64,000 bases of DNA, taken from NCBI GenBank assembly GCA_019748235.1, contig JAIEPU010000105.1, forward strand, positions 1 through 64,000, given 5' to 3'. How positions within the stretch are numbered: position 1 is the first letter of the stretch; each line of letters opens with the position of its first letter. A program made the translations under genes and the position numbers. The notes beneath the pieces were generated by a model. It saw only the letters and a list, made by a program, of their open reading frames with translations, ran no database searches and had not been told where the DNA came from. Positions 3,887 to 15,297 of this stretch are shown piece by piece. This DNA is from a bacterium (GTDB lineage Bacteria > Planctomycetota > Planctomycetia > Kolteriales > Kolteriaceae).

Positions 3887-4909
3887 ATGGAGGTCCCCCT
3901 GGCTGCCGTTCACAACCAGATCAATCCGATCACCAAGCTGTTCATGATTCTCCTGCGGATCGCAATCGGCTGGCACCTCCTCTACGAGGGTTACACCAAG
4001 ATTAACTCGACGATCGAGGGGAAGAAGCCTTTCTCGGCCGAGATGTATCTTCGAAATTCGACCGGCCCGCTTCGCTTCTATTTCCGTGGACTGGTGGACG
4101 ACAATCACGGCGTCGGCTTTTTGAATGCCGAGGTCGTCGGTCCGAAGTGGGACGAATACGTCAACGCGGAAGCATCGAAGCTCGGACTTTCGCAAGAGAG
4201 TAAGAAGCGGGTCGAGGATGTCGTCGCGACGAACAAGGACCTCTTGAAGAAGTACCTCGACGAGAAGTCCAAGGAGATCGATCGATACGAGGAAGATATC
4301 CAGGCGTTTGAAGATCAGGAACAGCGCCCGCTCGAGGGGTATGGCAAGCTCGCCGAGGGTCAGCTTCTTCGCCCTGCTCTGCCGAAGTTTGAATGGGACG
4401 CCCACAAGAAGGCGCAGCAGGCTCTCGACAAGAAGCGAATGGAGCTGACGGCTCCGGTGATGAAGTGGTCGGACGAGATCGTGGCGGCGGTAAAGACGGA
4501 AGCGTCGGGCAAGCCCGATCCGAAGACTGCCTCGGCCGCGACGCCGACGGTGCCGGGGATCGAGTGGCGGCCGCAACTTCGCGAAATCAATTTGACCACG
4601 ATGTATGGCCTGACCATCATCGGCGCTCTCATGATCGTAGGACTGTTTACGCGGACCGCGTGTCTGGCGGGGGCCGCGCTGTTGACGCTCTTTTACTTGT
4701 CGATGCCCCCCTGGCCCGGCCTAGACCCGGCTCCGATCGCGGAAGGGTCCTACCTGATCGTCAATAAGAACCTCGTCGAGATCATCGCCATGCTGATGAT
4801 GGCGACGTCGCCGGTCGGCGTGTGGGGGGGACTCGATTCGTTGATTCGGGGGTTGATCACTCGCCCGCTCTTCGGCGTCGGCAAGAAGGAAGTCCTCACG
4901 CTCGAATAA
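3887..4909 (+). CDS. DoxX family membrane protein
   Basis: 340 aa; FMILLRIAIGWHLLYEGYTKI...LTTMYGLTIIGALMIVGLFTRTACLAGAALLTLFYLSMPPW; followed by two Gfo/Idh genes. Confidence 0.8.
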   Translation: MEVPLAAVHNQINPITKLFMILLRIAIGWHLLYEGYTKINSTIEGKKPFSAEMYLRNSTGPLRFYFRGLVDDNHGVGFLNAEVVGPKWDEYVNAEASKLGLSQESKKRVEDVVATNKDLLKKYLDEKSKEIDRYEEDIQAFEDQEQRPLEGYGKLAEGQLLRPALPKFEWDAHKKAQQALDKKRMELTAPVMKWSDEIVAAVKTEASGKPDPKTASAATPTVPGIEWRPQLREINLTTMYGLTIIGALMIVGLFTRTACLAGAALLTLFYLSMPPWPGLDPAPIAEGSYLIVNKNLVEIIAMLMMATSPVGVWGGLDSLIRGLITRPLFGVGKKEVLTLE

Positions 4910-5033
4910 GCCCGAGAGCTTCTCCGCATGGAGAGGCTTTCCTTGGAATGAGCATTCGACCGGTCGGGTTGCTCATCGAATGGCAATCGAACAGATGTGT
5001 CGCGAACGGCCATGAAGTCGCGAAAGGGAAGAG

Positions 5034-6572
5034 ATGGCAGTATCACGAGAGCGTTTCGAGCGAGAAAAGCGAAATCTGTCACGCTTACTGTCGTTCAACC
5101 GCCGCGATTTCATGCGAGCGAGCGTGGCTGTCCCCGCGATGGGGGCGGTCTACTTCGGCTATCGTGAGCTGAAGGGAAGCCCGGTGCGAGCGGGCATCGT
5201 CGGAACGGGCAACGAAGGTTGTCAGGCGATGATCGATCAGAGCCCGCCGGGGTATCTAGAATATGTCGCCTATCACGACATTCGCCCTTCGCAGATCGCC
5301 CGCGGTCGTCGCGCTTTCCAAACGCTGTACGGTCAGACGGCGGGGAACAAGGTCAAGTTCTACGACAAGTACAGCGAAATGCTGGCCGATCCGAACATCG
5401 AGGTCATCGTCATCGCGACGCCCCTCTGGACCCATGCTAAGCTTGCGGTGGAAGCACTAAAGGCGGGGAAGCACGTCTTCTGTGAAAAGCTGATGGCTCA
5501 CAACATCACCGATGCTAAGGCGATGGTGCGAGCGGCCGACAACGCGGGGAAGCTGCTCGGCATCGGGCATCAACGACATTACAGCACCCTCTATGCCGAT
5601 GCGGTGAAGAACATCGACCAGGGGGTGATCGGCGAAGTGAAATACATTCGCGCGTTTTGGCATCGAAACAATGCCCTGACCGATCCCGTCACGGGCGAGA
5701 TCCGCGATTCGTGGAAGCCCGCGATCCCGGCCGATGACGAGGCGATCCGTAGCGTGGTCAAAGAGTACGGCTACGACAGCCTGGAACAGCTCATTCGCTG
5801 GCGACTGTATGACCGGACTGGCGGAGGATTGATGGCGGAACTCGGAAGCCATCAGCTTGATGCATGCAGCATCTTCCTGGGGCACGTGCATCCGGTCTCG
5901 GTGAGCGGCATGGGTGGGATCAACTTCTACAAGGATGATCGTGAGGCTTACGATCACGTCTATTGCACGTTCGAGTTCCCAAGCGGACAAGTCGTGACGT
6001 ATTCCTCCATCAACACCAACCAACTCGAAGGCTATGGTGAAGTGGTGATGGGAACTCGCGGCACGATGATGGTCCTCAACGAGCGCGACGTGTCGCTTTA
6101 CACCGAGCTTGATCCGAAGAAGCGCGAGCGAGATCAGGCGAAGGCAGCCGCCGAAGCGGGTAAGAGTGGCGGTGAGCCAGACGCGACGAACAAGCAGATC
6201 AAGGAAACCGTGAAGCTTCCCAAGCCGGGCGAAGCGACGATGTACTCTGCCGCGAGCCTGGGTGCCGCCGCCGCAGCCGCCGCCAAATCAAGCGAAGTCG
6301 TCAGTCGTGGTTACAAGGAAGAGCTCGAGCACTTCGCGTATTGCATTCGCCATCCGGGCGAAGGACAGAAGCCTCGCTGTGATGGGCGAGTCGGTTTGGC
6401 CGACGCAGTGATGGCACTCGCCGCGAATGTGGCGATCAAGGGGAATACTCGGATCGAGTTCAAAGATAGCTGGTACGATCCCGCGAGCCCAGACGTTCCC
6501 GATCCGGTGCCGGCGGACAAGTCACTGGCTCGGTCGGTCCCGGTACGGCGTCGACGAGTAAGCGTGTCGTAA
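5034..6572 (+). CDS. Gfo/Idh/MocA family oxidoreductase with Tat-like N-terminus
   Basis: NRRDFMRASVAVPAMG, then VRAGIVGTGNEGCQAMI and VIVIATPLWTHAKLAVEALKAGKHVFCEKLMAH. Confidence 0.9.
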   Translation: MAVSRERFEREKRNLSRLLSFNRRDFMRASVAVPAMGAVYFGYRELKGSPVRAGIVGTGNEGCQAMIDQSPPGYLEYVAYHDIRPSQIARGRRAFQTLYGQTAGNKVKFYDKYSEMLADPNIEVIVIATPLWTHAKLAVEALKAGKHVFCEKLMAHNITDAKAMVRAADNAGKLLGIGHQRHYSTLYADAVKNIDQGVIGEVKYIRAFWHRNNALTDPVTGEIRDSWKPAIPADDEAIRSVVKEYGYDSLEQLIRWRLYDRTGGGLMAELGSHQLDACSIFLGHVHPVSVSGMGGINFYKDDREAYDHVYCTFEFPSGQVVTYSSINTNQLEGYGEVVMGTRGTMMVLNERDVSLYTELDPKKRERDQAKAAAEAGKSGGEPDATNKQIKETVKLPKPGEATMYSAASLGAAAAAAAKSSEVVSRGYKEELEHFAYCIRHPGEGQKPRCDGRVGLADAVMALAANVAIKGNTRIEFKDSWYDPASPDVPDPVPADKSLARSVPVRRRRVSVS

Positions 6573-6626
6573 CGACTCGCGGCAAAATCCGAATAAAGCA
6601 CGAATCAACTTCCACGGGGAAGAGGC

Positions 6627-8147
6627 ATGAATCTCGACAGCAAGCAGACAGAGATCGGCAAGCAGAACTTCCTGACGGCGCTCGGCTCGCTGCAAGGAGA
6701 CTTTCTCCGTGGGGCACTCACCGCACCGGCCGTCGGACCGTACTTTTTCGAATACGGCACCATCGACAAGCCAGTGAAGGCAGGCATCGTCGGGACGGGG
6801 AACGAAGGTTGCCAGGCGATGATCGAGCAGAGCTCGCCGGCTTACCTCGAATTCATCGGTTATCACGACATCCGTCCAAGCCAGATCGCCCGCGGTCGTC
6901 GGACGTTCCAAAAGATTTATGGCACCGAGGAGGGAGACAAGGTCAAGTTCCACGAGAAGTGGGAGGATATGCTTGCCGATAAGGACATCGAAGCAATCGT
7001 CATCGCTACCCCGCTTTGGACTCACAAGAAGTTCGCGATTGAAGCGATGGAAGCGGGCAAGCACGTCCTCTGTGAAAAGCTGATGGCCCACAGCATTGCC
7101 GAGTGCAAGGAAATGGTCCGCACGAGTGAAAAGACAGGCAAGATTCTTTCGATCGGCCATCAACGACATTACAGCCCGCTCTATCAGCTCGCGCTCAAGG
7201 TTGTCGAATCAGGCGTGCTCGGCGACATCCGCCACGTCCGCGCTCTTTGGCATCGAAACAACACGTGGACGCTCTCGAACCCACACCGACCGGACCAGCC
7301 GACCATGGCCGCTCCTGACTTTGGTGTCTCGGGCGATAGCTGGTGTCCCATCGTTCCGACGGAAGACAACAGTGTGAACGCTTCCGCTTTTGGTTATAAG
7401 TCGCCTGAGGAACTGGTGCGCTGGCGGCTGTATGACCGGACAGGCGGCGGTTTGATGGCGGAACTAGGAAGCCATCAGCTCGACGCGTGCTCGCTCTTCC
7501 TCGGCAAAGTCCATCCGCTTCGGCTTCTCGCCACCGGCGGTAAATTCTTCTTCGAAGACAATCGCGAGTGCGAGGATCACGTCTACTGCATGTATCAGAT
7601 GCCGGGAGGAGTGACGCTCACTTACTCCACAATCAACACGAATACCCAAGAGGGCTATGGCGAAGTCGTGATGGGAACGCGCGGCACGCTCTGTGTGATG
7701 AATGAACGGGACGTCATGCTCTTCAAAGAACGAGAACCTGGCGACACGACCATCCCGGAAGAGACGTACATCACTGTTGTTACTGATCCGAAGGGGGGCA
7801 AGCCGGTGTTAAAGAGTACGACCAGCACCGCCCTGACGGCAGAGGCAGGACTCGCCAAGACGGCATACGAGCGCAGTGTTTACTTCGTACCGAAGGGGGC
7901 AACCGCACCCACCGTGAATAGGGGCTATTTCACCGAGATCGAAGCGTTCGCTTTCGCGATTCGCAATCCTGATTCGTACAAGGTCCGCTGCACCGGACAG
8001 GTGGCCTTGGCGGACGCAGTCATGGCACTCTCAGCGAATGTCTCGATGCGATCGAAGCGGCCGATCGAGTTCAAGGATAGCTGGTACGATCCAGCCTCTG
8101 AGGACGCTCCCGAAACCGCGCCGGCGAGCGTCGTTAAGAACGCTTGA
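6627..8147 (+). CDS. Gfo/Idh/MocA family oxidoreductase, tandem paralogue of upstream gene
   Basis: VKAGIVGTGNEGCQAMIEQSSPAYLEFIGYHDIRPSQIARGRRTF...ATPLWTHKKFAIEAMEAGKHVLCEKLMAH; collinear with the preceding ORF. Confidence 0.9.
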   Translation: MNLDSKQTEIGKQNFLTALGSLQGDFLRGALTAPAVGPYFFEYGTIDKPVKAGIVGTGNEGCQAMIEQSSPAYLEFIGYHDIRPSQIARGRRTFQKIYGTEEGDKVKFHEKWEDMLADKDIEAIVIATPLWTHKKFAIEAMEAGKHVLCEKLMAHSIAECKEMVRTSEKTGKILSIGHQRHYSPLYQLALKVVESGVLGDIRHVRALWHRNNTWTLSNPHRPDQPTMAAPDFGVSGDSWCPIVPTEDNSVNASAFGYKSPEELVRWRLYDRTGGGLMAELGSHQLDACSLFLGKVHPLRLLATGGKFFFEDNRECEDHVYCMYQMPGGVTLTYSTINTNTQEGYGEVVMGTRGTLCVMNERDVMLFKEREPGDTTIPEETYITVVTDPKGGKPVLKSTTSTALTAEAGLAKTAYERSVYFVPKGATAPTVNRGYFTEIEAFAFAIRNPDSYKVRCTGQVALADAVMALSANVSMRSKRPIEFKDSWYDPASEDAPETAPASVVKNA

Positions 8148-8237: not shown

Positions 8238-9803
8238 CTACGTTTCGCTAGGGTCGCACACTCGGATTAAATCACTGATCAGCAGTTCCGCGCTCGCGTA
8301 GCGATCCTCTGGGTAGAATGCCAAACACTTTGCTAATAACTCCTCGACTTCGACGGGAAGATCGGGACGAATCGTTCGGACGGACGGAAGATTCTCAAAG
8401 ACGTTCCCCTTATTCCGGCTAAAGACCGTCGTCGCTTGAGCCGGCGAAATATGCGTCAATAATTCGAAGAGCAAAATACCGAGAGAAAATATGTCTGTGG
8501 CAGGACCGATCTCACGCTTCACAACGCCTGCTTGCTCAGGGGACATGTAAAAAGGTGTCCCTAGTAGGTCTCCGCTCGCGGTGATGCCACTCTCTTCCAT
8601 CAAACTTTTCGCGAGCCCGAAATCGGCGAGCTTCGGAACAAATCGAAAGACTGAGTCGTCGTCTGGAGCCAGAACTGCTGGATCGGTAAGAGGGGTCAGT
8701 AGTATGTTCGCGGGCTTGATGTCTCGGTGAATGACACCCTTCGAATGGCAATGAGCTACTGCTGCTGCAATCTGAATCACCATAGAAGCGGCGAGTGATA
8801 ACGGAATGGGCTGCCCATGAGACGATTGCCACTCACGCAATGACGGCCCTTCACATTGCTCGCACGCTATATAACAAATATCTTCTAATTCACCCACCTC
8901 GATGATCTTGACTAGATTCTTGTGATCCAAAGCGGAAAGGATCTTTCCCTCACGCAGGAATCGGTCTCGAATTTGGGGAAACGATGACACACTTGTGCGA
9001 AGGCACTTCAAAGCCACCAGCCGACTTGTTCGCACGTCAGTCGCCAGAAACACCACCCCGAACGCGCCACTCCCGAGGTCTCGCTCGATTCGATACGGGC
9101 CCAATTTCTCCGGCATGTCTTCCGGCGGCGGTTCAGGCAAAAGCAACGCGTGCAGGTCCGCCGACTCGATATCAAAGGTCGCCCCCTCTTTCCGGGCGAG
9201 TGCGACCCACTCCTCTAACCCTCTGGAAATCACCTTTCGAACGGCGTCCTGGGACATTTTCAGGACCAATGCAATATCCTCGAGCGACTCTCCATCCTTG
9301 AATCTTGCTTTGAGGAACTCTCGAGCCCGATCAGGCAGCTTTTCAAATGCCGCCAAAATCATTGCCTTTTCCTCGTTCATCGATGCAAGAAGGCTAGGAG
9401 TCGGGTCACTTCCGGAAACGTCGAAGTCGCCGATTTGTCTTTCTTTCTCAATGTTTTTGTTTTCCGCTTCCGTGTATTCCTCAATCACGTGTCCAATATC
9501 GTGACTTAAGATCGTTTGCAGCCAAGCGACCAACTGCGGCAAATGGTCCCCTTTAAACTGCGGAAAATCACGGTCCGCTTTGATCATTGTCCTTTGAACG
9601 ATGTCAGAGGCGCCGATTTTCCTTCGTAAGTGCGAGCCGAGTTTTCGATGGGCAATCGCCCAAAGGTACCGGCGAAAACTCTCTAGAAGCTCCGTTTTCG
9701 CACTCTCGCTGCCTGATTTCGCTCGTGCGAGAGTCTGCTCGAGTTTCCTCGTCGATACGGATTCTAAATCAGACATGTCCATTCCGCTGCCTGTGACATC
9801 CAT
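8238..9803 (-). CDS. ECF-type RNA polymerase sigma factor fused to Ser/Thr protein kinase
   Basis: N-term sigma2-like (RRKIGASDIVQRTMIKADRDFPQFKG) and sigma4-like (FEKLPDRAREFLKARFKDGESLEDIALVLKMSQDAVRKVISRGLEEW). C-term kinase has GSGAFGVVFLA, HRDIKPANILL, ADFGLAKSL, GTPFYMSPEQAG. Single 521-aa ORF. Confidence 0.88.
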   Translation of the reverse strand: MDVTGSGMDMSDLESVSTRKLEQTLARAKSGSESAKTELLESFRRYLWAIAHRKLGSHLRRKIGASDIVQRTMIKADRDFPQFKGDHLPQLVAWLQTILSHDIGHVIEEYTEAENKNIEKERQIGDFDVSGSDPTPSLLASMNEEKAMILAAFEKLPDRAREFLKARFKDGESLEDIALVLKMSQDAVRKVISRGLEEWVALARKEGATFDIESADLHALLLPEPPPEDMPEKLGPYRIERDLGSGAFGVVFLATDVRTSRLVALKCLRTSVSSFPQIRDRFLREGKILSALDHKNLVKIIEVGELEDICYIACEQCEGPSLREWQSSHGQPIPLSLAASMVIQIAAAVAHCHSKGVIHRDIKPANILLTPLTDPAVLAPDDDSVFRFVPKLADFGLAKSLMEESGITASGDLLGTPFYMSPEQAGVVKREIGPATDIFSLGILLFELLTHISPAQATTVFSRNKGNVFENLPSVRTIRPDLPVEVEELLAKCLAFYPEDRYASAELLISDLIRVCDPSET

Positions 9804-11310: not shown

Positions 11311-14300
11311 TTGCAGGGCACACGACGAATAAGCCAATACTCTTTATCGGATGAACTCGGTCGCGGCGGGACCGGGGTTGTCTATCGAGCCTACGATTCG
11401 AATCTTGATCGCACCGTCGCATTAAAGCTACTCATCGCCGGAAGATTCGCGAGCAAAGACGAAAGAGAACGTTTCCTTCGACAGGCGCGATATGCAGCCG
11501 CCATCGAGCACCCGCTGATCGTCAAGCAATATGACGCGGCCGTTATCGACAACGTCCCGTACATTGCCAGCGAACTCATTGAAGGAACGAAGCTCGAGGG
11601 AAGTGCCGATTTTTTTGGGTGGTCTCCCAAGCAAGTCGCAATCGTTATTGCCGAGATTGCCGACGCGATCGCTGCCGCCCATCGAGCAGGCATCATCCAT
11701 CGAGATCTGAAACCCGCTAATATCATCGTCGATGGAAACGACCATCCTCACATCACAGACTTCGGACTCGCGAAAGCAATTGAAGCACAAGTTTCGCTGA
11801 CTCACTCGGGACAAATTCTCGGCACCCCCGCCTACATGAGTCCCGAACAAGCTTCGGGTGGTTCGGAGCAAGTCGACTTTCGAACGGATATCTACAGCAT
11901 CGGGGCGATTCTCTACGAACTTCTCACGGGAGTTCCACCTTTCCAGGGAACGCCGGAGCAAGTGATCTTCCAAGTCCTTCAGGATGAGCCCGTCCCTCCA
12001 AGCAGACTCAATCCGACCGCCCCAAAAGACCTTGAAACGATCTGCCTTCGGGCGATGTCTAAGGATCCTGCTCGGCGATTCTTGTCTGCGGAAGCTTTAC
12101 GAGAGGAACTCCTCCGTTTCACACGGGGAGAGCCCATTCTTTCTCGTCCGATATCACGTCTTGAGCGGGCCATACGATTCTGTCGGCGATACCCAACACA
12201 AACCGCATCGACTGCCGGAATCGTTCTCCTCTTAACGACTACAACCATTGCCGTTACTCTCTGGGGAATCGACTCTCGGGCAAAGGCTGAAAAAGAACGT
12301 GAACTTCGGTCCGTCACACAGAATCTGCTTCGAGATCGCACCAAAGAGCTTGTCCGACTCAATCTCGATCGAGCAAACGAATCGGCAGAACGAGGGCAAA
12401 TGGGGCGATCACTCGCGTGGATCCATAACGCCAGAAAGATTGACGACCAAGGACTGATTCCCCAGGAGACCTATGAACGCCATTGGGCATTGACTTCAGC
12501 GTCACACCCGACCCTCTCGACTTGCATACCGATGGATTCGTCCTCAAGACTACTCAGATTCAACGATCAAACCAAGTCCCTCGCCATGCGCACCGCCCAA
12601 GGAATTATTATATACAATACAACAACTGGACTGCTTCACCGCGAAATAAAACTTCCGTCCAAGCATAGCACCATCACCGCGAATCGAGACTGCACGCAGG
12701 TTGCAATCGCATACAGCAAGAACGAGAACGAGGATATCTTACAAATATGGGACATCCCGACGTCCTGTCTAATAACTCAAATGAACATTCCCATCAAACC
12801 GACTAATATTACTTTTGCACCAAACTCTGATGATGTTATTCTTAATAATTCAATAATCAATAAATGTATTCTTTTCTCTCGGACAACCAAGTCCGTTGAA
12901 CCCATCTTTACAGGAAAAGCAGTACTCTTCTTGAAATCCGACATGCGAAACACCGTTATTGCCACGATTGAAGATCAGCACACATTGTGTGTATTCACGA
13001 ACGATTTATTCCATCCCGTCGCTTCGACACGACTATCGAAGCAAATGAAATTTATTCAATCAGACCAAACGGATGGTTATATAATATCTACAATGCACGA
13101 TTCTGAGGGGACGCAGTTTCTCAGTTGGCATTACGAGGATCCTCAATCATCGCCATCGATTTGGCCCAACAAATTCATTCAATCAGTCGACATTGATCCC
13201 GCTCACGCGAGAATATTACTTTCAAGTAAACATTCAATCGATGTTTATAGTCTCGCGAACCAAGAGCATTTATATCGTTTGGAAAGAGCTAACTCATCGA
13301 TTCATTCTGCTTACTTTGCATCCGATGACAAGGTCCTCTATACCACCGGACCCAGCCATTCGCATCTCTCCTTGAATCAATGGGACATGGACTCAAACCG
13401 CGTTTGCGAGAATTATTTATCACTCGCATCGGGGATTCGAACAATTCAGCGATCAAGTGACAGTTACTCTCTCTTAACGATCGGGAATGATTCAATCGCC
13501 CGAATCTGGACTCCGCCATTAGAAGAGTGTTCGTCGCCGCCGTTTGCGGCCAAGTCCGAAGTTAGAAAACAGATCACACTGCCGGAGTCGACGCCCTTCC
13601 ATGAGGCAACGCCTGAAATCGCAGCTGTACAATTCGTTCAAGCAAGTCTTGGCCGCCACACACTTCCTGAGAATCTCCCACTACCACCCAATCGAATTGG
13701 CACCTATTTACAGGATAGCCAAAGAAGAATAGTCGCCTACTTAACGAGAAATCATCGATTTCAAGTCATGAATCAAGCGGATTCAAAATTGTTGTTTGAT
13801 CAACCTGTTGACAAGAGTCGAGGAATGGAGATTTTCATCGATGACAAGGAGACGATGTTTGCAATATTGTCTTCGAATGCCGAAGTCCTCGTTTTGCCAG
13901 TTAACCCAGTGGGATCCGCGGTTAGACTCATATTTCCTGAACCAAGCCCAAACTGGAAACTGCAGTTTCATCCTCATCTTCCGTTCATCGCGGCATATAA
14001 TCTAACTGGATCGATTTACATTTGGAAAATCGTCGATGGAACAAAGCCTTTCATTCACCTTAAGCATCGAAGCCCAGTGTCTATTCTTCACTGGTCAGAT
14101 CGCGACAATAAAATAGTCGTCATTGGACAAGATGGTAAGGTCGCCATGTATCAAGTCGAAGGCGAGAATACCACGATAGCAAGCCAATTCAACTTAGACA
14201 AAGTCATTGATGCATCCACGGTTGATATTTCCGGATCAATGCTTGCGGTAATCTCAAACCAAACCGAATTACAAATCTGGGACCTGCTCCGCGGCGAGCC

Positions 14301-15297
14301 TTTTACTGGGATACTTCGTTTTCAATCTCCCATCTCCTCTCTCCGATTCACATCCGACGGTTCCTCCCTTTTCCTGGGGGATACGTTCGGCCTCATCCAC
14401 CACTATTCCGTCAAGCCTCTTGCCGTCATGCCTGAACTGCGGGACGACTATATAGGACTACTCCTCGGCGAAAGAATCCGTACTGATGGACGATGGGAGG
14501 ATATCCCGGCAAATGTATTGAAAGAGAGTGCCCTCAAATGGCAAATCGCGTCTCCACTTAAAAGGTCATCGAATTCGGAGCATAGGATTAAATGGCATAA
14601 GCGACAAGCCGTGGAAGCAATCGTCGCGAATCACCCTGAGCTCGCAGCCTATCACTATGAAGAGGCGTTGGCTATCAATCCCAAAGATTATCTTTTGAAT
14701 GTAACTCACGCTCATGCTTGCGCACGTAGTAAACAGTTCGATGCAAGTCTGCGAAGCTGGCGACATGCCATTGATTTAGGTGATCGACATTTCTCGACCT
14801 ATTACGATGCATGTCTGATCGCGGCGAAGATTGGGCATGAGAATGCTCTACGACAACTGATGAGTGAGATTCAATCGGAATTCGGTGATTCAAGTGATCC
14901 TGACATCATGATAAAACTGGCGCAAATTTACACATCTGTCCCCCCTCCCTTTGGTGATCTAAATTTATCGATTAAGTTTGCCCGGAGAGCACTGGAAACT
15001 CGAAAATCAGACCCGAGAGCTCAAATGATCTTAGGCGGCACACTCTATCTCAAAGGTGACAAGAAAGAGGCTGGCAAGATCATGAACAGTGCTATCCAAA
15101 ATACGCCGTTCGCATTTATCGCAATCGCGAATTCTGATGGAGCCCTCACCCCACGAATCATCCGCGAGCAAGTAAAATACTTCCGCGGGCAAGCGGACCA
15201 GAAACCCTTAAGTCTCGAACAAGCCTTCACTGGTTGGAGAACTTCCGTCGAAGCCGATCTGATCGAGAAAAGATCACTCGAGTTTCAAGAGAAGTGA
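11311..15297 (+). CDS. Large Ser/Thr protein kinase with TM helix, WD40-like repeats and TPR-like C-terminus
   Basis: YSLSDELGRGGTGVVYRAYD, HRDLKPANIIVDG, DFGLAKA, GTPAYMSPEQ; TM near TASTAGIVLLLTTTTIAVTLW; repeated '..LQIWD' type beta-propeller segments; AAYHYEEALAINPKDYLLNVTHAHACA. TTG start. Confidence 0.88.
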   Translation: MQGTRRISQYSLSDELGRGGTGVVYRAYDSNLDRTVALKLLIAGRFASKDERERFLRQARYAAAIEHPLIVKQYDAAVIDNVPYIASELIEGTKLEGSADFFGWSPKQVAIVIAEIADAIAAAHRAGIIHRDLKPANIIVDGNDHPHITDFGLAKAIEAQVSLTHSGQILGTPAYMSPEQASGGSEQVDFRTDIYSIGAILYELLTGVPPFQGTPEQVIFQVLQDEPVPPSRLNPTAPKDLETICLRAMSKDPARRFLSAEALREELLRFTRGEPILSRPISRLERAIRFCRRYPTQTASTAGIVLLLTTTTIAVTLWGIDSRAKAEKERELRSVTQNLLRDRTKELVRLNLDRANESAERGQMGRSLAWIHNARKIDDQGLIPQETYERHWALTSASHPTLSTCIPMDSSSRLLRFNDQTKSLAMRTAQGIIIYNTTTGLLHREIKLPSKHSTITANRDCTQVAIAYSKNENEDILQIWDIPTSCLITQMNIPIKPTNITFAPNSDDVILNNSIINKCILFSRTTKSVEPIFTGKAVLFLKSDMRNTVIATIEDQHTLCVFTNDLFHPVASTRLSKQMKFIQSDQTDGYIISTMHDSEGTQFLSWHYEDPQSSPSIWPNKFIQSVDIDPAHARILLSSKHSIDVYSLANQEHLYRLERANSSIHSAYFASDDKVLYTTGPSHSHLSLNQWDMDSNRVCENYLSLASGIRTIQRSSDSYSLLTIGNDSIARIWTPPLEECSSPPFAAKSEVRKQITLPESTPFHEATPEIAAVQFVQASLGRHTLPENLPLPPNRIGTYLQDSQRRIVAYLTRNHRFQVMNQADSKLLFDQPVDKSRGMEIFIDDKETMFAILSSNAEVLVLPVNPVGSAVRLIFPEPSPNWKLQFHPHLPFIAAYNLTGSIYIWKIVDGTKPFIHLKHRSPVSILHWSDRDNKIVVIGQDGKVAMYQVEGENTTIASQFNLDKVIDASTVDISGSMLAVISNQTELQIWDLLRGEPFTGILRFQSPISSLRFTSDGSSLFLGDTFGLIHHYSVKPLAVMPELRDDYIGLLLGERIRTDGRWEDIPANVLKESALKWQIASPLKRSSNSEHRIKWHKRQAVEAIVANHPELAAYHYEEALAINPKDYLLNVTHAHACARSKQFDASLRSWRHAIDLGDRHFSTYYDACLIAAKIGHENALRQLMSEIQSEFGDSSDPDIMIKLAQIYTSVPPPFGDLNLSIKFARRALETRKSDPRAQMILGGTLYLKGDKKEAGKIMNSAIQNTPFAFIAIANSDGALTPRIIREQVKYFRGQADQKPLSLEQAFTGWRTSVEADLIEKRSLEFQEK

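What the first reader, a model, noticed from the sequence alone, without database searches (positions are those of the whole stretch)
8238..9803. Single-polypeptide ECF-like sigma factor / Ser-Thr kinase fusion
One 521-aa ORF has sigma region 2-like and region 4-like segments in its first ~200 residues, then an apparently complete kinase domain (G-loop, HRDIKPAN, DFG, APE-type MSPEQ). Separate ECF sigma factors encoded near kinases are described in Planctomycetes, so the association has precedent. A direct fusion suggests a sigma factor whose promoter activity is set by its own kinase through cis-phosphorylation, without a separate anti-sigma factor.
Basis: partly seen in the sequence, partly recalled or inferred. 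Interest (0 to 1): 0.72.

Follow-up and report, generated by a model that had tools for sequence, protein, structure and literature searches.

The report
Sigma factor fused to protein kinase
A planctomycete gene really does encode one soluble protein that joins a transcription-initiating sigma factor to a complete Ser/Thr kinase; it most likely arose by fusing a common two-gene pair and losing the membrane sensor, and a separate, older family of similar fusions turned out to be common in the same bacterial class.

Summary
Window 8238-9803 (-) is one uninterrupted 521-aa ORF: an ECF-type sigma domain (residues ~28-205), a ~31-residue linker and a complete RD-type Hanks kinase (237-515). It ends just past the kinase and has no sensor domain. 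In its relatives both halves come from one neighbouring gene pair: nearly every related sigma gene is followed by a same-strand kinase gene, usually overlapping it. The fusion removed the pair's spacer and the kinase's C-terminal sensor region.

The architecture is not unique. A junction search and then a profile search found a second, widespread sigma-kinase fusion family: 40 of 298 Planctomycetia genomes, 38 verified uninterrupted ORFs, none in ~190 genomes sampled mainly from other planctomycete classes. That family has acidic DxED in sigma 2.2 and a non-RD kinase (38/38). The window protein has GASD and HRD, like the separate pairs, and both its domains sit among pairs in trees. So it is most likely an independent fusion, although AU tests do not exclude one origin.

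Best mechanism: the kinase phosphorylates its own sigma domain, probably at Ser66, the position phosphorylated (as Thr) in EcfP. This is inferred, not shown. A marked loss of basic charge in sigma 2.3-2.4 leaves promoter binding in doubt.

The parts
8238..9803 (-). Whole fusion ORF, 521 aa, ATG start
   Evidence: domains
9429..9722 (-). Sigma region 2 (residues ~28-125), including core-binding 2.2 and -10 recognition 2.3-2.4
   Evidence: Sigma70_r2, TIGR02937; AF2 helices 33-115
9606..9608 (-). Ser66 codon in the GASDIVQ motif (the DAED position); candidate phosphosite
   Evidence: alignment (Ser in 51 of 62 paired sigmas); literature PMC8103513, PMC8999054
9441..9494 (-). Acidic 2.4 segment GHVIEEYTEAENKNIEKE (residues 104-121), basic in related sigmas
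9189..9362 (-). Sigma region 4 helix-turn-helix (residues 148-205)
9096..9188 (-). Linker (residues 206-236), acidic and proline-rich, predicted disordered
   Evidence: pLDDT <50 over 223-270
8259..9095 (-). Complete Hanks-type RD Ser/Thr kinase domain (residues 237-515), K266, HRD 359-361, DFG 394-396

Best explanation
The gene is a real in-frame fusion of an ECF sigma factor and the Ser/Thr kinase gene that follows it in the common planctomycete ECF-STK two-gene arrangement. The fusion lost the kinase's N-terminal spacer and its whole C-terminal sensor region. It most likely works as a self-contained regulator: the RD kinase autophosphorylates, then phosphorylates its own sigma domain (in cis, or in trans within a dimer), most likely at Ser66 in region 2.2 and possibly in the Thr135-Pro-Ser137 loop between sigma2 and sigma4. 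That restores the negative charge needed to dock on the RNA polymerase beta' clamp. With no membrane sensor, activity would be set by expression level, dimerisation, a soluble ligand or a phosphatase. Shown: the fusion, intact catalytic residues, the sigma fold, derivation from the pair type, and conservation of Ser66 in paired sigmas. Inferred: phosphorylation, its site, its effect and the input.
For: ORF and domains. The best sigma hit and the best kinase hit in family relative G001 are one adjacent pair on C34; in G002 the best sigma hit is adjacent to the second-best kinase hit. Similarities of the two halves across 53 pairs correlate (Spearman 0.52, p 6e-5). The domain-to-domain gap is 109 nt, against a minimum of 176 and a median of 335 in 74 separate pairs, so a plain stop-codon error does not explain it. 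Both domains nest among pairs in trees: sigma in a 97%-supported 47-row set of pairs and unpaired ECFs, kinase in a 98%-supported 20-row set with 19 pairs. The protein shares the pairs' marker states: Ser at DAED position 3 (51/62 pairs) and HRD (52/53 pairs), against acidic and non-RD in all or nearly all of the other fusions. Ser at that position is enriched in paired over unpaired sigmas (51 S:3 E against 16:12, Fisher p 8e-5; not corrected for phylogeny). Published: EcfP is activated by phosphorylation at that position (PMC8999054), a Ser equivalent is proposed for ECF59/60 (PMC8103513), and EcfK is also phosphorylated in the sigma2-sigma4 loop (PMC13147305).
Against: Asp67 remains acidic, so region 2.2 is not stripped as in EcfP. 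Region 2.3-2.4 net charge is the lowest of all sigmas compared (-4; z -4.3 against pairs), with R108E and R109E, which argues against normal promoter binding; on the other hand 20 of 23 strongly conserved sigma positions are kept and Glu108 also occurs in 15 of 38 other fusions. AlphaFold shows a disordered linker and no defined sigma-kinase docking. The window's own fusion is known from one genome only. AU tests do not reject a common origin with the other fusions (p 0.23 and 0.10).
Confidence: 0.5

Rival explanations
1. The sigma domain no longer recognises promoters. It keeps core-RNAP contact and tethers a soluble kinase to RNA polymerase, or acts as a decoy, so the output is phosphorylation of RNAP or of other sigma factors.
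For: Region 2.3-2.4 has net charge -4 against +4.5 +/- 2.0 in 62 paired sigmas (none as low) and +3.9 in 38 other fusions; R96Q, R108E, R109E, K115N. Long terminal branches for both domains (1.25 and 1.01).
Against: 20 of 23 strongly conserved sigma positions and 6 of 8 conserved basic columns are kept, both ordinary. Region 2.2 is also unusually positive (+2), which does not favour strong core binding without phosphorylation.
Confidence: 0.22
2. It is a divergent member of the widespread sigma-STK fusion family, which was fused once, rather than an independent fusion.
For: Identical architecture and size; 29% identity end to end (119 bits); AU tests do not reject one clade (p 0.23 kinase, 0.10 sigma).
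Against: The best trees place both domains inside the pair clades and are 21.8 and 39.4 log-units better. It has HRD and GASD, while 38/38 fusions are non-RD and 37/38 have E or D at the Ser66 position.
Confidence: 0.13
3. Two-product reading: an internal start at Met230 (DMPEKLGPY) also makes a free soluble kinase, so sigma and kinase act partly in trans.
For: A GGAAG stretch lies just upstream of this ATG, and the ATG sits where a stand-alone kinase would start.
Against: Spacing of the GGAAG is only ~2 nt; no comparable internal start was tested in other fusions; not testable from sequence.
Confidence: 0.08
4. Assembly artefact or decaying gene.
For: Fragmented assembly (326 contigs, 89.8% complete); no orthologous fusion in the two family relatives even with all candidates scored.
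Against: Interior of a long contig; continuous coding signal; intact catalytic residues; the joint lacks sequence present in every separate pair; the same architecture is conserved elsewhere.
Confidence: 0.07

Closest known systems
ECF-STK two-gene systems of Planctomycetes (ECF59/ECF60-type groups as described in PMC8103513)
   Same: Same sigma subtype and kinase type; Ser at the DAED position; no anti-sigma factor; both halves of the fusion retrieve the same pair loci.
   Different: There the kinase is a separate gene, commonly overlapping the sigma gene, with a spacer; in the two pairs examined by Pfam it has C-terminal WD40 repeats after a hydrophobic segment. Here it is one soluble protein without the sensor.
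ECF43: EcfP/PknT (Vibrio parahaemolyticus) and EcfK/PknS (Xanthomonas citri)
   Same: Proposed logic: the kinase phosphorylates region 2.2 (and, in EcfK, the sigma2-sigma4 loop) to allow RNAP binding (PMC8999054, PMC13147305).
   Different: There Thr in a mostly uncharged motif (STTA/QTTA) and a separate transmembrane kinase (PknS); here Ser in GASD with Asp67 kept, and a fused soluble kinase.
Second sigma-STK fusion family found here (type member G462 C21; 38 verified ORFs)
   Same: Same order, size and soluble architecture: sigma, 15-51 aa linker, kinase, short tail.
   Different: Acidic DxED in 2.2 and HCD/HGD non-RD kinase; different sigma subgroup.
ECFs with C-terminal regulatory extensions (ECF41 SnoaL, ECF42 TPR, ECF57 WD40)
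   Same: A regulator fused C-terminally to an ECF instead of an anti-sigma factor (PMC8999054).
   Different: The extension is a catalytic kinase; none of the reviews read lists a kinase extension.

Membership tests
ECF sigma factors (sigma70 group 4) | sigma2 and sigma4 present, no sigma3 | tested here: met
   TIGR02937 above cut-off; Sigma70_r4 above and Sigma70_r2 below cut-off; fold matches AlgU/SigmaE
ECF sigma factors (sigma70 group 4) | Functional core and promoter binding | not testable with these tools
   Charge reversal in 2.3-2.4 raises doubt
TIGR02984 Sig-70_plancto1 subfamily | Score over the curated cut-off of 183.75 bits | tested here: not met
   118.5 bits for the sigma part alone; related but not a member by this criterion
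Hanks-type Ser/Thr kinases | Complete fold with K, HRD, DFG, APE/SPE motifs | tested here: met
   Foldseek match to PknB
ECF-STK two-gene pairs | Separate sigma gene followed by a same-strand kinase gene | tested here: not met
   Single ORF; works like and derives from the pairs
ECF43 | Phosphorylated Thr in an uncharged region 2.2 motif | tested here: not met
   GASD: Ser not Thr, and Asp67 kept; ECF group HMMs were not available
Widespread sigma-STK fusion family (this work) | Acidic DxED motif and non-RD (HCD/HGD) kinase | tested here: not met
   GASD and HRD in the window; 37/38 and 38/38 in the family
Widespread sigma-STK fusion family (this work) | Common origin in sigma and kinase trees | tested here: inconclusive
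   Best trees place it outside; AU p 0.23 and 0.10

The most novel reading that the evidence does not exclude
Fusion of a sigma factor to its own activating kinase has evolved at least twice in Planctomycetia: once as an old, widespread family (acidic region 2.2, non-RD kinase) and once, more recently, in the window's lineage by collapse of an ECF-STK operon. This would be a sensor-less, anti-sigma-free 'self-phosphorylating sigma factor'.
Probability: 0.45. Interest if true: 0.75.

Novelty: new variant of a known kind. Interest (0 to 1): 0.6.

Why it matters
Regulation of sigma factors by direct phosphorylation has been worked out for only a few two-gene systems. A natural one-chain version would let sigma activation by phosphorylation be reconstituted with one purified protein plus core RNA polymerase, and mutants in two places (Ser66 and the kinase) would test the model directly. 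The widespread second family (about 13% of the Planctomycetia genomes sampled) shows that the architecture is stable and selected, and its different chemistry (acidic 2.2, non-RD kinase) asks whether fused kinases still activate sigma the same way.

Tried and rejected
First conclusion, later overturned: searches with the sigma part, the full protein and TIGR02984 found no other fusion, because only a few candidates per genome are scored and kinases crowd them out. The junction query and then a two-member profile revealed the second family. Long open frames holding a sigma domain (L154, L155, L156, L157, L021) were checked and are not kinase fusions: the sigma lies at their C-terminal end. 'Degenerate sigma' as a general statement was rejected: conserved positions are retained at the median rate. 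Simple stop-codon loss from an overlapping pair was rejected because the joint is shorter than in all 74 pairs. The first combined alignment (A1) laid the sigma rows over the kinase and was discarded. Promoter and terminator scans of the upstream region gave chance-level results. The search for related loci returned only kinases. Key subscription papers (the ECF re-classification, the EcfP paper, Jogler 2012, Mahajan 2020) were not held, so I cannot exclude that such fusions are listed there.

Full report
OBSERVATION. Window 8238-9803 (-) is one ATG-started ORF of 521 codons without internal stops. Pfam and NCBIfam recognise sigma region 4 and the ECF superfamily above their cut-offs, region 2 just below its cut-off, and a full protein kinase domain. 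The kinase keeps the glycine loop, K266, HRD 359-361, DFG 394-396 and a GTPFYMSPEQ segment. GC by codon position keeps a coding pattern in one frame through the linker. AlphaFold models of the full chain and of the sigma part give well-defined sigma2 and sigma4, a disordered linker, and a kinase whose C-lobe is confident but whose N-lobe is not. Foldseek matches the sigma model to AlgU, SigmaE and SigW and the kinase to PknB.

ORIGIN. In the loci examined, almost every relative of this sigma factor is followed by a same-strand kinase gene: 74 such separate pairs (62 non-identical sigmas) were found, 55 with overlapping open frames. At least seven lie in this genome, and the two checked with Pfam carry WD40 repeats C-terminal to the kinase. 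When every candidate in the two family relatives was scored, no fusion was found, but in G001 the best sigma hit and the best kinase hit were neighbours in one pair. Across 53 pairs, similarity to the window sigma and to the window kinase are correlated (some loci were fetched by sigma and some by kinase hits, so the value is indicative). The window joint is 109 nt between domain ends, shorter than in all separate pairs (176-870 nt), and the protein ends a few residues after the kinase. So the fusion is not a mere lost stop codon; it involved deletion of the spacer and of the sensor region. The three genes on its 3' side (3887-8147) are a block conserved in both family relatives, whereas the fusion is absent there.

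A SECOND, WIDESPREAD FUSION FAMILY. Early searches suggested a unique gene. A query across the junction found two other single-frame fusions in distant families of the class, 49% identical to each other end to end. A profile of those two matched 40 of 298 Planctomycetia genomes at E<=1e-70. In a phylum-wide sample of 199 genomes, mostly from other classes, the only match was in a genome of the same class. Scanning the fetched ORFs verified 38 uninterrupted fusions (L241 duplicates L237), each with sigma, a 15-51 residue linker, kinase and a tail that is mostly under 25 residues. In trees these fusions group together for sigma (3 changes, 1 not excluded) and for kinase (one side of a branch, support 92). 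The window protein does not join them: its sigma sits in a supported set of pairs and unpaired ECFs, its kinase in a supported set with 19 paired kinases. Marker residues agree: DAED position 3 is Ser in 51/62 paired sigmas and in the window but E or D in 37/38 fusions, and the kinase is RD in 52/53 pairs and in the window but non-RD in 38/38 fusions. AU tests do not formally reject one origin (p 0.23 kinase, 0.10 sigma). An independent second fusion is therefore favoured, not proven.

MECHANISM. In EcfP the residue at DAED position 3 (Thr) is phosphorylated by the partner kinase and restores the negative charge needed to contact the RNAP beta' clamp (PMC8999054); a serine equivalent is proposed for the planctomycete-type groups ECF59 and ECF60 (PMC8103513); EcfK is additionally phosphorylated in the sigma2-sigma4 loop (PMC13147305). 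The window has Ser66 at that position, has lost Asp64 and the acids at 71 and 75, and has region 2.2 net charge +2, among the most positive of the set. That is the state expected of a sigma factor that needs phosphorylation. The loop retains the family's T-P-S motif (Thr135-Pro136-Ser137). The kinase is of the RD type, expected to autophosphorylate. Hence the best reading is self-phosphorylation in cis or within a dimer that enables core binding. What is shown is anatomy, derivation and conservation; phosphorylation, site, effect and input are inferred. The lack of the sensor region means the input must be cytosolic (abundance, dimerisation, ligand, phosphatase).

DOUBT. Region 2.3-2.4, which contacts the -10 element, has net charge -4 where 62 paired sigmas average +4.5 (none as low) and the 38 other fusions average +3.9. 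Strongly conserved positions are otherwise kept at the median rate. A sigma-like RNAP tether for a kinase is thus a serious rival.

NOVELTY. Separate kinase-regulated ECFs and ECFs with C-terminal extensions are known; a kinase as the extension was not mentioned in the papers I could read nor found by ten literature searches. The main ECF re-classification and the Planctomycetes-specific papers were not available, so prior mention cannot be excluded. I rate it a new variant of a known kind.

Noticed in passing
window 11311-15297 (+): A 1328-aa (TTG start) Ser/Thr kinase with C-terminal WD40-like and TPR-like repeats lies 1.5 kb from the fusion on the other strand; it has no sigma gene directly beside it.
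   Followed up: partly
window 3887-8147 (+): A three-gene block ending in two tandem oxidoreductase paralogues (the second is Gfo/Idh/MocA by Pfam) is conserved in order in both family relatives (L223, L224), while the fusion next to it is not.
   Followed up: yes
G000 C287:578-1179 (L164): An ECF sigma factor split over two overlapping frames (218 and 120 aa frames), either a frameshifted pseudogene or an assembly error.
   Followed up: no
G000 C295:9951-11573 (L198): A sigma gene and a zinc-ribbon kinase with a hydrophobic segment lie in the same reading frame, separated by a stop codon, with a further in-frame TAA in the kinase: a near-fusion arrangement or a decayed gene.
   Followed up: partly
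L252 (G030 C13) and L271 (G476 C1): Two members of the widespread fusion family carry one in-frame TAG; sequencing error, pseudogene or read-through not distinguished.
   Followed up: no
L154 (797-aa frame), L155 (585-aa frame), L073 (619-aa frame): Sigma domains at the C-terminal end of long open frames, possibly ECFs with large N-terminal extensions or just open upstream sequence.
   Followed up: no
alignment of 97 related sigmas: Ser replaces Glu at DAED position 3 in sigmas with an adjacent kinase far more often than in those without (51 S:3 E against 16:12), fitting a phosphoswitch across Planctomycetes; not corrected for phylogeny.
   Followed up: partly
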